From Azospirillum brasilense (GTDB taxonomy: Bacteria; Pseudomonadota; Alphaproteobacteria; Azospirillales; Azospirillaceae), in contig NZ_CP032345.1 of assembly GCF_005222205.1 (NCBI RefSeq), positions 1,181,001-1,245,000 on the forward strand: 64,000 bases of DNA. Direction: 5' to 3'. Every line of letters begins with the position of its first letter. Position 1 is the first letter of the stretch. The position numbers were made by a program, and so were the translations under genes. Positions 1-58,445 of the stretch are shown in pieces. The notes under the pieces are model-generated. The model ran no database searches. It saw only the letters and a list, made by a program, of their open reading frames with translations, and was not told the origin of the DNA.

Positions 1-23
1 TCGCGGATTTGAAGCACGGATTA

Positions 24-102
24 CACGGATTTTTCTTTGATCTTGCTCAGCAGAAGCGTCTCGAAAAGCCATTGCTGGGCGAGCATGAAAGAAAAATCCG
101 TG
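24..102. repeat. AT-rich inverted repeat built on CACGGAT
   Basis: A 15-bp perfect inverted repeat (CACGGATTTTTCTTT at 24-38, its complement at 88-102) flanks about 49 bp. The core hexamer is reiterated: CACGGATT occurs twice in the left arm (from about 16), and TCCGTG three times in the right arm and beyond (about 97-123). The stretch is far more AT-rich than its surroundings and has no plausible gene. It lies downstream of the 3' end of the minus-strand SDR gene. A transcript could fold into a long hairpin, so it may act as a terminator, or it may be a dispersed repeat. Neither is proven from one copy. Confidence 0.6.
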
Positions 103-171
103 AAAAGATCCGTGAAATCCGTGTGAATCTTGTGATCCAAGCCCATCACCCGCAACGGGCAACCACCCGCA

Positions 172-2247: not shown

Positions 2248-2361
2248 TAAAGCGGATTGCAATCCGCTTTGGATCGCGACGGCGGTCCCGGCCGCACATG
2301 CGGCCGAAGCCCGCCGGCAAGTGAGGCGATGTGAGTCTAAAGCGAACGGAAGTTCGCTTTA
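2248..2361. repeat. 114-bp composite palindromic repeat, copy 1
   Basis: Three dyads in series. The first is a perfect 22-bp palindrome (2249-2270, AAAGCGGATTG and its complement). The second is a central hairpin around ACAT (stem CGGCCGC/GCGGCCG, about 2289-2306). The third is a 9-bp stem with GGAA loop (2339-2360). The ends TAAAGCGGA and, inverted, TAAAGCGAA form imperfect terminal inverted repeats. Copy 2 is at 31685-31798. The right end supplies the TAA stop codon of the Nudix gene (2359-2361). Confidence 0.9.
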
Positions 2362-15729: not shown

Positions 15730-15799
15730 TTGCCCCCTCCCTACCCCTCCCCCGCCTTCGGCGAGGGAGGGACCCGCAAAGCGGGAGGGAGGGGGGCAA
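15730..15799. repeat. GC-rich nested palindrome between rpsP and rimM
   Basis: An outer stem (TTGCCCCCTCCCT with AGGGAGGGGGGCAA) encloses a hairpin of CCCTCCCCCGCC, TTCG and its near-complement, and a small CCCGCAAAGCGGG hairpin. It belongs to the same family as the elements at 31646, 31801, 42188 and 58376. It sits within the ffh-rplS transcript, so the RNA could fold and affect processing or partial termination. Confidence 0.8.
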
Positions 15800-17617: not shown

Positions 17618-18013
17618 GGGTCAGCGGTCCTCAGTTTCGGTCTCCATCCGCTCGAACGCGATCGGCTCAAGCACAAACGAGCCAGTGCGCGAAACTCGCG
17701 GACTGGCGGAGGTCCCCGGCACGCAGGCCGATGGTACCCGGTCGATGGCTCGACGGATGCAGGTCGGCGGACCATACGCATCGCGGGGTGCGGAGTCAAC
17801 CATGCAGAAACGCCCTGCCCAAGCGGAGCCTCTTGCGCAACGGCGCGCAAAAGGTCACTATTTCCATACACAACAAGGGGCTTTGCGGCCCAGGGAAAGC
17901 GCCCGCGATAGAACGCATTCGAGGCGTACTTGAATAAAGCGTTACCGATTGTTAACTTTTTCTTCGCGGCTCCCCTTTAGAGTGTGTCGCGACTCCAACC
18001 CGGGATTTCCCTG
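17618..18013. other. Divergent intergenic region between ffh and pentapeptide gene
   Basis: About 395 bp with no supportable gene. The short open frames here lack coding signs. The part near 17850-17975 is markedly more AT-rich and probably carries the divergent promoters. A possible plus-strand box pair is TTGAAT (about 17929) with TTAACT about 16 bp downstream, but it is weak. I see no tRNA-like or riboswitch-like fold. Confidence 0.5.
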
Positions 18014-31645: not shown

Positions 31646-31683
31646 CCCACCCTTCCCTCCCCCGCTGACGCAGGAGAGGGAGC
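31646..31683. repeat. GC-rich palindrome, left member of a repeat nest
   Basis: CCCTCCCCCGC, TGAC and an imperfect complement GCAGGAGAGGG, preceded by CCCCACCC. It is the same family as the elements at 15730, 31801, 42188 and 58376, and abuts the 114-bp repeat with 1-2 bp between them. Confidence 0.65.
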
Positions 31684-31684
31684 T

Positions 31685-31798
31685 TAAAGCGGATTGCAAT
31701 CCGCTTTGGACCGCGACGGCGGTTTCGGTCGCACATGCGACCGGAGCCCGCCGGCGAATGAGGCGATGTGAGTCTAAAGCGAACGGAAGTTCGCTTTA
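31685..31798. repeat. 114-bp composite palindromic repeat, copy 2
   Basis: It has the same length and order of dyads as the copy at 2248-2361, in the same orientation. It differs at eight positions, all transitions. In the central stem C-to-T and G-to-A changes are paired (CGGTCGC/GCGACCG), so the hairpin is kept. The outer palindromes are identical in the two copies. Confidence 0.9.
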
Positions 31799-31800
31799 GT

Positions 31801-31842
31801 CCCCTCCCCTGCGATAGCGGGGGAGGGTCAGGGAGGGGGCAA
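31801..31842. repeat. GC-rich palindrome, right member of the repeat nest
   Basis: The stem CCCTCCCC-TGC with GC-GGGGGAGGG over a GATA loop is followed by TCAGGGAGGGGGCAAG. It is nearly identical to 58379-58419, from which it differs only in the loop. Confidence 0.85.
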
Positions 31843-57516: not shown

Positions 57517-58445
57517 TGCCCACCGTCAGCGCCGTCATCGCCACCTTCAACCGCGCGCCGGAGCTTCGCACCGCGCTGTCCCGCCTGCTCGCCCAGACGC
57601 ACCCCGTCGCGGAGATCCTGGTGGTGGACGACGGGTCCACGGACGGCACCGACGCCATGGTGCGGGGGGAGTTCCCCAGCGTCCGCTACGTCCGGCTGCC
57701 GCACAACGCCGGGCTGATCTACGCCCGCAACTTCGGCTTCGTGAACACGACGGGCGATTACGTGCTGTCGGTGGACGACGATTCCTGGTTCGCCGAGCCG
57801 GACGGCCTCGCCCGGACGGTGGCCTACATGGAGACGCACGCCGACGTGGCGGCGGTGGCCTGCAACATCGAGACGCGCGACGGGCTGGTCTATTTCCCGC
57901 CGCAGGCCGATCCCTTCGACGCGCCCTGGTACGTCGGCTGCGGCCATCTGCTGCGCCGCAGCGCGGTCGCCGCCACCGGCCTCTACATGCCGGAGCTGTA
58001 CCGCCAGGGGGAGGAAAAGGACCGCTGCCTGCGGCTGATCGGTGCCGGCCACCGGGTGGTCGCCCTGCCCGGCGTCATGGTCTATCACGACAAGAGCGAG
58101 AAGGGCCGCAAGCCGGGGCTGGAACGCTTCTACAACCACCGCAACGACCTGATCCGCGAGATCGCCCGCTGCCCCGCCGGCCTGCTGCCCTGGCGCTTCG
58201 TACGGAGCTGGATCGGCAACAGCTGGAAGAACCTGCGCCACGGCCCGCGGCTGACCGACCTCAAGGTTCTGCTGGCCCTGCCGGAGATCCTCCGCATCGG
58301 CCTGAAGCACCGCGCCCCCGTCAGCGAGGACGCCTACCGCCGCTGGCTGCACCTGTCCAAGACGGCAGCACCCAATTCCCCTCCCCTGCAAAGCGGGGGA
58401 GGGTCAGGGAGGGGGCAAGTGCCCGTCAGCCGCACCTCCCCCTGA
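57516..58445 (+). CDS. GT2-family glycosyltransferase with repeat-derived C-terminus
   Basis: 309 residues. The core begins TVSAVIATFNRAPELRTALS, with VVDDGSTDGTDAM and the metal motif SVDDDSWF. The acceptor side holds WYVGCGHLLRRSAVAATGLY and the GEEKDRCLRLIGAGH segment. The last roughly 22 residues (after LHLSKTAAPN) are encoded by the GC-rich palindrome at 58376-58419. The repeat reads in frame, replaces the natural C-terminus and supplies the path to the stop codon. The N-terminal catalytic domain is intact, so the enzyme is probably active. Confidence 0.9.
   Translation: MPTVSAVIATFNRAPELRTALSRLLAQTHPVAEILVVDDGSTDGTDAMVRGEFPSVRYVRLPHNAGLIYARNFGFVNTTGDYVLSVDDDSWFAEPDGLARTVAYMETHADVAAVACNIETRDGLVYFPPQADPFDAPWYVGCGHLLRRSAVAATGLYMPELYRQGEEKDRCLRLIGAGHRVVALPGVMVYHDKSEKGRKPGLERFYNHRNDLIREIARCPAGLLPWRFVRSWIGNSWKNLRHGPRLTDLKVLLALPEILRIGLKHRAPVSEDAYRRWLHLSKTAAPNSPPLQSGGGSGRGQVPVSRTSP
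58376..58419. repeat. GC-rich palindrome inserted in the 3' end of a glycosyltransferase gene
   Basis: CCCCTCCCCTGC, AAA, GCGGGGGAGGG, then TCAGGGAGGGGGCAAG: nearly identical to 31801-31842 outside the loop. It lies inside the reading frame of the upstream glycosyltransferase and encodes PPLQSGGGSGRG. Confidence 0.85.

What the first reader, a model, noticed from the sequence alone, without database searches (positions are those of the whole stretch)
2248..2361. 114-bp composite palindrome present twice, with a compensatory stem change
The element recurs in the same orientation at 31685-31798, about 29 kb away, with exactly the same length. The outer palindromes are identical. All eight differences are transitions. 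Two of them fall on paired positions of the central stem (C to T with G to A), keeping the hairpin, which is what selection on a folded RNA or DNA structure would leave. The ends TAAAGCGGA and TAAAGCGAA form imperfect terminal inverted repeats flanked by TA, as in small MITE-type elements. This looks like a structured dispersed repeat, perhaps an undescribed Azospirillum REP or small-RNA family.
Basis: partly seen in the sequence, partly recalled or inferred. Interest (0 to 1): 0.75.

Follow-up and report, generated by a model that had tools for sequence, protein, structure and literature searches.

The report
Mobile pseudoknot element at gene ends
A 114-base DNA element sits at about sixty places in this Azospirillum genome, mostly on or just past the stop codons of genes, and holds a core predicted to fold whose paired bases change together across species; it is likely moved by the enzyme of a larger transposon in the same genome, and a similar core with different ends occurs across many Alphaproteobacteria.

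Summary
The two window copies belong to a family of about 60 places in this 7.2-Mb genome, with matches in 27 of 45 genus genomes, own included. At both window loci, relatives hold the empty site, with a single TA in the exact matches. All 52 distinct copies examined lie in YTAR (6.5% of TA sites expected). A resident 1,064-bp IS630-type element has closely similar ends and the same target. So this is an IS630-type TA-MITE. About half the copies (29 of 54) replace a stop codon: TA plus the element's AA restores TAA.

Pairing constraint is strong: five helices, 16 pairs with double changes against 4.6 shuffled. The inner core reads as an H-type pseudoknot. Unexpectedly, the same core, with unrelated terminal hairpins and TNA instead of TA duplications, occurs elsewhere in Azospirillaceae, and the pseudoknot motif across Alphaproteobacteria. 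Rfam 15 searches found no family. Mobility by IS630 is well supported; an RNA-level role of the core is likely but unproven. A conserved GANTC site links the group to published Caulobacter CIR repeats, which I could not compare.

The parts
2248..2361 (+). copy 1 of the element (114 bp including both TA)
   Evidence: absent in 20 of 20 relatives with both flanks aligned, of 22 loci given
31685..31798 (+). copy 2 of the element
   Evidence: absent in 6 of 6 relatives with both flanks aligned, of 21 loci given; exact empty site with a single TA in L103 and L104
2248..2249 (.). left copy of the duplicated target TA
   Evidence: empty site GGGGGC-TA-GAGCAT in L070
2360..2361 (.). right copy of the duplicated target TA
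2249..2270 (+). H1: left terminal hairpin AAAGCGGAT-TGCA-ATCCGCTTT; the element's first 12 bases (2248-2259) equal the IS630 left end
2271..2288 (+). H2: 7-bp stem with GACG loop
   Evidence: inner 4 pairs also by RNAalifold
2289..2306 (+). H3: 7-bp stem, loop ACAT; column pair 45-56 shows all four Watson-Crick pairs in the family
2309..2318 (+). pseudoknot: S1 GCC (2309-2311) with GGC (2316-2318), enclosing the 5' arm of S2 (2312-2315)
   Evidence: S1 (columns 62-64/70-72); S2
2319..2328 (+). pseudoknot loop AAGTGA (2319-2324) and 3' arm of S2 (2325-2328)
2333..2337 (.). GANTC site (GAGTC), 25-29 nt from the right end, same distance as GATTC in the IS630 right end
   Evidence: 111 of 136 distinct rows
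2338..2361 (+). H5: right terminal hairpin, GNRA-type loop GGAA
2359..2361 (-). stop codon TAA of the flanking Nudix gene (2359-2928, minus), supplied by the element; TAG at this site in the empty allele L070
31686..31707 (+). H1 of copy 2
31708..31725 (+). H2 of copy 2 (two outer pairs become G-T)
31726..31743 (+). H3 of copy 2 with the compensated T-A pair
31746..31765 (+). pseudoknot of copy 2
   Evidence: by alignment with copy 1
31770..31774 (.). GANTC site (GAGTC) of copy 2
31775..31798 (+). H5 of copy 2

Best explanation
This is a 114-bp non-autonomous transposable element (a TA-MITE) that is likely moved in trans by the transposase of a resident 1,064-bp IS630-family element and that carries a core predicted to fold as an H-type pseudoknot. 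Shown: about 60 places in the genome; TA duplicated at the two window copies and TA at both ends of all 52 copies examined; target YTAR in all 52; the IS has the same first 12 bases on the left, a similar right end with TTTAGA-GANTC at the same distance, and the same target. Shown, with my own gene calls: about half the copies lie exactly on a stop codon, where TA plus the element's own AA gives TAA, so the protein end is unchanged. Shown: five helices covary across the genus. Inferred: the transposase binds the terminal hairpin arms. Inferred: the inner core is kept by selection on base pairing, most likely as RNA of the plus strand when neighbouring genes are read through, where it probably acts as a barrier at transcript 3' ends; copies upstream of genes would then be purged, which fits their near absence between divergent genes. 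Inferred from relatives: the core is a module that has been combined with unrelated transposon ends (TA/IS630-like here, TNA type elsewhere).
For: Copies and sharp ends. Empty sites: copy 1 in 20 of 20 relatives with both flanks aligned (of 22 given); copy 2 in 6 of 6 (of 21 given), exact in 2. Target: 52 of 52 own copies and 75 of 77 relative copies in YTAR against 6.5% of TA sites (the right flank of L131 corrected, still YTAR); 9 of 9 IS630 copies in YTAR. IS ends: right ends share 22 of the first 29 bases including GANTC at 25-29; the best of about 464,000 background positions on one strand was 19. One IS copy sits in the terminal TA of a MITE copy (L060), and two MITE copies share one TA. 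Stop codons: 29 of 54 own copies and 20 of 31 relative copies, against 20 of 227 background non-coding YTAR sites. 43 of 52 own copies have a gene ending within 60 nt. Covariation: 97.7% of cells paired (shuffled 94.8%), 16 pairs with double changes against 4.6, 0 of 500 shuffles, slid versions 28-46% paired. S2 third pair in 114 rows of the wider group: 99 paired against 60.9 shuffled, maximum 74. GNRA loop on the plus strand in 105 of 136 rows, on the minus strand in 1. G-T against A-C in H2+H3 20:4.
Against: No transposition, transcript or structure probing data. G-T against A-C over all helices is 51:35, p 0.105, so the H2+H3 result (20:4) is post hoc, and H4 (the pseudoknot S2) goes the other way (7:10). 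Between co-directional genes the element is 9 to 9 in orientation, which does not favour a one-strand function in host mRNA. No intrinsic-terminator-like site (at least 5 T in the tail) was found at either copy. Close IS630 relatives were found in only some element-bearing genomes, and G034 has an 85% identical transposase but no element match, so elsewhere the partner is lost, different or not enough. 3 of 9 IS copies also sit at stop codons, so part of the 3'-end bias comes from the target site and not from the core. The left end of the MITE after base 12 is not similar to the IS (17 of 29 in all).
Confidence: 0.74

Rival explanations
1. A purely selfish IS630 MITE: the helices are cruciform or hairpin arms kept symmetric by template-switch (quasi-palindrome) correction during replication, without any RNA role.
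For: Correction makes both sides of a stem change together in one step and acts on either strand; no orientation bias among co-directional genes (9:9); G-T against A-C not significant overall (51:35).
Against: Loop motifs (GACN, GNRA on one strand in 105 of 136 rows, NNNTGA) are conserved although loops are free under this model; the core persists while the terminal palindromes change completely.
Confidence: 0.3
2. A domesticated bidirectional 3'-end element (terminator or mRNA stabiliser) or a small RNA family: copies are kept where they help the host.
For: 32 of 54 copies lie between convergent genes and 1 between divergent genes; similar bias in the wider group: 30 convergent, 50 co-directional, 5 divergent among 85 resolved of 123 places.
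Against: Insertion sites are not shared between species at the two loci tested, copies within the genome are near identical, and no classical terminator tail is present.
Confidence: 0.2
3. A lineage of the published Caulobacter CIR repeats (about 110 bp, conserved GANTC, Alphaproteobacteria), with DNA methylation by CcrM as the key feature; the pseudoknot core would then be an unrecognised part of a known repeat group.
For: GANTC at a fixed place with all four N in 111 of 136 rows; size, intergenic place and class as described in PMC2229807 section 7. In the G072 relative, GANTC lies at the loop of the right hairpin in 8 of 8 copies (GAGTC 7, GAATC 1), as described for CIR, and in the wider group 37 of 118 cores have GANTC within 60 nt downstream against 10.6 expected.
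Against: In the window family the GANTC lies in the linker before H5, not in a loop; it is also in the IS630 end, so it may be an end feature; no GANTC in the element in 8 of 8 G032 copies or in the 4 G091/G095 copies looked at; 81 of 118 cores of the wider group lack it within 60 nt.
Confidence: 0.25

Closest known systems
RUP of Streptococcus pneumoniae (107 bp, IS630-Spn1)
   Same: Similar size; TA target; ends like those of a resident IS630; proposed trans mobilisation (passages of PMC3049150 and PMC2229807)
   Different: RUP is AT-rich, its ends pair with each other, and it was proposed to insert near IS elements; no pseudoknot core or stop-codon placement appears in the passages read
CIR repeats of Caulobacter and other Alphaproteobacteria
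   Same: About 110 bp, two long inverted repeats, conserved GANTC, strictly intergenic (PMC2229807 section 7; PMC10969869 passage). The G072 relative also has GANTC at a hairpin loop
   Different: In the window family the GANTC is in a linker; CIR mobility is described as unclear; sequences could not be compared (Chen and Shapiro 2003 not held)
RIME and AB/C elements of Sinorhizobium
   Same: About 108 bp with two palindromes (recalled), alphaproteobacterial, intergenic (PMC2573895 passage)
   Different: No match of model R1 with E below 0.17 in 299 kb of pSymB
IS630 itself (CTAG target)
   Same: TA duplication, preference for TA in CTAG (reference title in PMC2170065)
   Different: IS630 codes its transposase; the element codes nothing
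SPRITE of S. pneumoniae
   Same: Enriched at 3' ends of convergent genes (a passage of PMC3049150 that appears to mean SPRITE)
   Different: Single terminator-like duplex with a long U-rich tract

Membership tests
IS630-type TA-MITE | TA target duplicated on insertion | tested here: met
   single TA in exact empty sites of both window copies; shared TA in adjacent elements
IS630-type TA-MITE | Terminal repeats match a full IS630 in the genome | tested here: met
   left 12 of 12 first bases (17 of 29), right ends 22 of 29; DDE_3 transposase
IS630-type TA-MITE | Same target preference as the IS | tested here: met
   YTAR 52 of 52 and 9 of 9
IS630-type TA-MITE | No coding capacity, many near-identical copies | tested here: met
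   114 bp
IS630-type TA-MITE | Moved by the IS transposase in trans | not testable with these tools
   needs an assay
REP/BIME with RAYT | GTAG or CGTC foot next to the hairpin | tested here: not met
   ends are TAAAGCG; the presence of RAYT genes was not tested
CIR repeats | Conserved GANTC in an about 110-bp intergenic repeat | tested here: met
   111 of 136 rows
CIR repeats | GANTC at a terminal loop of a long stem | tested here: not met
   in the window family it lies in the linker before H5 (structure); met in the G072 relative, 8 of 8 copies
CIR repeats | Sequence homology to CIR1-CIR4 | not tested
   sequences not available
RIME of Sinorhizobium | Homology to RIME copies | tested here: inconclusive
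   no R1 match below E 0.17 in 299 kb of pSymB; no RIME reference sequence at hand
Any Rfam 15 family | Match above gathering score | tested here: not met
   window; L001, L285, L286, L287, L291 at E up to 1: only naRNA4, 24.2 bits against 59.5 needed
H-type pseudoknot | Two interleaved stems with covariation | tested here: met
   S2 covaries in the family and its third pair in the wider group; S1 is nearly invariant, so it is supported by pairing only
H-type pseudoknot | Forms in RNA | not testable with these tools
   needs probing

The most novel reading that the evidence does not exclude
The pseudoknotted core is an undescribed alphaproteobacterial structured-RNA module that travels between transposon chassis: it is packaged as MITEs with IS630-type ends (TA, YTAR) in Azospirillum and with unrelated TACC...GGTA ends (TNA) in other lineages, and is parked at gene ends, where its ends rebuild the stop codon.
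Probability: 0.42. Interest if true: 0.87.

Novelty: new variant of a known kind. Interest (0 to 1): 0.72.

Why it matters
MITEs are usually defined by conserved ends around a free interior. Here the interior is what persists, with covarying stems and a pseudoknot, while the ends change with the transposase system. If confirmed, it would explain how one structured element family spreads through a class of bacteria, would add a motif that Rfam 15 searches did not name, and would give a clean test of whether mobile repeats act as portable 3'-end modules. The stop-codon-rebuilding ends show how an insertion can be placed on a coding boundary without changing the protein end. The GANTC shared with the IS630 right end also makes a direct test possible of whether CcrM methylation times transposition.

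Tried and rejected
Considered and set aside: sRNA gene with its own promoter (no sigma-70-like site, and H1 starts at the element end); REP/BIME (no GTAG/CGTC foot); classical intrinsic terminator (no T-rich tail); phage origin (no match in 50,697 phage records); RIME homology; Rfam families.

Tests that did not support my reading: G-T against A-C over all helices is 51:35, p 0.105; only the post hoc subset H2+H3 is skewed (20:4), and H4 is 7:10. In the extra hairpin of the wider group it is 3:4. Orientation among co-directional genes is 9:9. S2 pairs 4-6 in the wider group are near the shuffled level (48, 18 and 37 of 114 against 45.4, 20.2 and 35.6). The CCCTCCCCCGC arm next to copy 2 is not over-represented in the window by single-arm count (12 against 9.15). 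RNAalifold alone does not find the S2 helix. Of 9 IS630 copies 3 are at stop codons, 1 between divergent genes and 1 in a predicted gene. G034 has a close IS630 but no element match.

Limits: gene calls are from my own codon model and shift slightly with training (30 convergent, 10 and 9 co-directional, 0 divergent, 1 spanning, 2 unresolved of 52; 32, 9 and 9, 1, 1, 2 of 54). One search scored only 14 candidates per genome and only 40 of 130, so their counts are lower bounds. The scan pattern fixes S1 and two bases of S2', so only S2 pair 3 onward is a fair test there. Rows dropped: 1 of 137 with many gaps before (136 left); one search listed 118 rows (every second own row); 82 of them, from 15 genomes, were chosen by me for A1; identical copy-plus-flank pairs were merged. 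Relative copies whose ends are not TA were left out of the YTAR count of 77. Among the 52 own copies two have another element as right flank (L023, L060), and L131 was measured at an internal TA; its true right flank is G.

Literature: searches showed no description of this element in their listings; this covers open-licence PMC papers only. Seen as passages: PMC3049150, PMC2573895, PMC3189936, PMC2170065, PMC5172544, PMC10969869; passages and section 7 of PMC2229807; PMC2267715 searched for five words with no hit. Not held: Chen and Shapiro 2003, Osteras 1995. Recalled, from no call: TNA duplication as typical of the IS5-family IS1031 group; RIME size and palindromes; Dam control of IS10. GTAG/CGTC feet of REPs are from an abstract.

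Full report
Observation. The left and right palindromes each occur twice in the window (expected 0.00 and 0.01). The 8 differences are all transitions, and the pair at columns 45 and 56 is compensated. Both strands of both copies fold 5.4-5.9 sd better than shuffles.

Family. In the window's own genome, blastn gives 41 full-length places with only 40 of 130 candidates scored; a left-end pattern gives 53 places after leaving out the same palindromes read backwards; a covariance model gives 60 places, the other 46 of its 106 rows being those places, whole or in part, on the other strand. Of the seven extra places fetched, two are full (L315, L316) and five have altered or missing ends (L317-L321). 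I extracted 52 distinct copies; all begin and end with TA, and the flanks shown are unrelated. In the genus, 15 of 36 other genomes match by blastn; 2 of 24 genomes of other genera show only weak short matches. With the model, 27 of 45 genus genomes including the own one match at E up to 1e-5, 19 strongly (below 1e-25) and 8 weakly. The genus is Azospirillum.

Insertion. Copy 1 is absent in all 20 relatives (of 22 loci given) whose two flanks could be aligned. In L070 the site reads GGGGGC-TA-GAGCAT, the flanks of copy 1 with one TA. Copy 2 is absent in 6 of 6 relatives with both flanks (of 21 given), and L103 and L104 have the exact site with one TA. Two copies lie head to tail sharing one TA, and one IS630 copy lies in the terminal TA of a MITE copy (L060).

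Partner. DDE_3 (IS630-type) transposase genes occur 10 times. Nine belong to one 1,064-bp IS (length TA to TA) whose ends begin TAAAGCGGATTG and, from the right, TAAAGCGGATTT. The MITE left end begins with the same 12 bases and then differs (17 of 29 in all). The right ends agree at 22 of 29 bases, with TTTAGA and GANTC at the same distance; the best of about 464,000 background positions on one strand was 19. The MITE target is YTAR in 52 of 52 own copies (TTAG 27, CTAG 16, TTAA 5, CTAA 4; L131, counted there as TTAA, is TTAG) and in 75 of 77 relative copies with intact ends. The IS target is YTAR in 9 of 9. The background is 283 of 4,351 TA sites in 464 kb (p 2e-62 for 52 of 52). TTAG exceeds its reverse complement CTAA (27:4 and 41:9), so insertion is oriented. 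That IS630 prefers TA in CTAG is known to me from the title of Tenzen and Ohtsubo 1991, cited in PMC2170065.

Gene ends. By my own gene calls, 29 of 54 own copies and 20 of 31 relative copies have a neighbouring gene whose stop codon is the element's terminal TAA; 43 of 52 own copies have a gene ending within 60 nt. At copy 1 the empty allele has TAG there: inserting at TA restores a stop because the element adds AA. Among own copies 32 lie between convergent genes, 18 between co-directional genes (9 in each orientation), 1 between divergent genes, 1 is read through by a gene, and 2 are unresolved; among the 31 relative copies the numbers are 12 convergent, 18 co-directional and 1 divergent. 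Background non-coding YTAR sites are stop 20, convergent 26, co-directional 106, divergent 75. Stop codons are enriched (odds 13.6, p 4e-13) and divergent regions depleted (p 4e-7). Three of 9 IS630 copies also lie at stop codons, so part of this is the target site.

Structure. On 82 aligned copies from 15 genomes the five-helix structure has 97.7% of cells paired (shuffled 94.8%), 16 pairs changed on both sides (4.6), 99 such cells (24.5), 0 of 500 shuffles reaching any of these; sliding the partner drops pairing to 28-46%. Pair 45-56 occurs as C-G, T-A, A-T and G-C. RNAalifold on its own finds H1, H2, H3 and H5 (H1 and H2 in their inner pairs) and the GCC/GGC stem at columns 62-64/70-72, not my H4. 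These last two are compatible as an H-type pseudoknot: S1 = GCC/GGC; S2 is formed by the S1 loop and a downstream arm, with a 6-nt loop ending TGA. S2 occurs as CGCC/GGCG, GGCC/GGCC, GACC/GGTC and CACC/GGTG within the genus.

RNA or DNA? The H5 loop is GNRA on the plus strand in 105 of 136 rows and on the minus strand in 1. G-T exceeds A-C in H2+H3 (20:4) but not in the terminal hairpins (24:21), in H4 (7:10), or overall (51:35, p 0.105). This favours RNA of the plus strand for the core, weakly and post hoc.

Relatives with other ends. The model also gives 23 rows of a mostly 120-121-bp relative in G032 (another Azospirillum), 145 rows among 150 scored in G072 (another genus of the family), and 4 and 7 rows in G091 and G095; outside the genus 12 of 37 genomes of the order sample match at E up to 1e-4. 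They share H2 with a GACN loop, H3, AGCC, an optional hairpin with a GGAT or GAAT loop, and the pseudoknot with other S2 pairs (TGCGT/ACGCA, GCCC/GGGC, GCT/AGC, TCC/GGA), but their terminal hairpins are unrelated. Their ends are TACC...GTA or GGTA with a 3-bp TNA duplication: 6 of 8 distinct G032 copies printed, 3 of 3 G072 copies with both ends in view, and L345. Of the 80 with titles, 78 name alphaproteobacterial taxa and 2 are MAGs titled only Proteobacteria. The unforced third pair of S2 is formed in 99 of 114 rows (shuffled mean 60.9, maximum 74; C-G 70, G-C 27). These places show the same avoidance of divergent regions (5 of 85 resolved, of 123). No Rfam 15 family was found for the window element or for five loci.

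GANTC. The CcrM methylation site stands at a fixed place in 111 of 136 rows with all four bases at N (52 G, 49 A, 6 C, 4 T). In the G072 relative it lies at the loop of the right hairpin in 8 of 8 copies; it is absent from the 8 G032 elements and the 4 G091/G095 elements looked at; in the wider group 37 of 118 cores have it within 60 nt downstream, against 10.6 expected. This recalls the Caulobacter CIR repeats, where the site is at a terminal loop (PMC2229807 section 7) and whose sequences I could not compare. In the window family it is in a linker next to the right end, at the same distance as in the IS630 end. It may mark a methylation-timed transposition end, as known for Dam and IS10 (recalled); that is untested.

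Verdict. An IS630-type TA-MITE, strongly supported, with a covarying pseudoknotted core that is shared with elements bearing other ends. The mobility class is known; the exchangeable structured core is not described in the listings I could search, with the CIR repeats as the open question.

Noticed in passing
window 31655-31665, 31802-31827; also 15745-15771 and 58379-58403: Copy 2 is inserted inside another inverted repeat (CCCTCCCCCGC ... GCGGGGGAGGG). Similar arms flank other copies (L021, L027, L136, L138). Single-arm counts in the window are not above chance.
   Followed up: partly
window 17672-17723, minus strand: ffh sRNA (Rfam RF01793, 40.1 bits).
   Followed up: no
L026:1501-1614: A predicted gene reads through the whole element in frame and ends with its right TA plus the flanking G: an apparent C-terminal extension of about 38 codons.
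   Followed up: no
L131 (G000:C1:519817-519952): A 136-bp copy carries an apparent 22-bp tandem duplication of the linker with S2' and GANTC.
   Followed up: partly
L405, L344, L336, L386, L409: Relatives of the core form tandem arrays with spacings of about 104-141 bp in Nitrospirillum, a Rhodospirillales MAG and the Roseomonas group.
   Followed up: no
G072 contig ends (for example L325-L329): 145 model rows of a relative of mostly about 110-135 bp; many lie at contig ends, so the repeat probably breaks this assembly.
   Followed up: no
L077 and L079, at the site of copy 1: Two relatives hold a different insert of roughly 90 bp, in L077 with inverted GTAGGTTGGGTGGA / TCCACCCAACCTAC ends, between the same two genes.
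   Followed up: no
L157, L160, L174: Other IS630-like elements of the genus have TAGAGCGGATT ends, a near variant of the ends here.
   Followed up: partly
L456:2119-2190 and L458:25546-25615 (Sinorhizobium meliloti pSymB): A dispersed repeat begins TAGAGCGGGATG, has CATCCCGC, and is followed by GAATC: similar IS630-like ends and a GANTC without the core.
   Followed up: no
L012 around 1501-1614; window 1-120: A copy is inserted within a CACGGAT / ATCCGTG repeat; a similar repeat opens the window.
   Followed up: no
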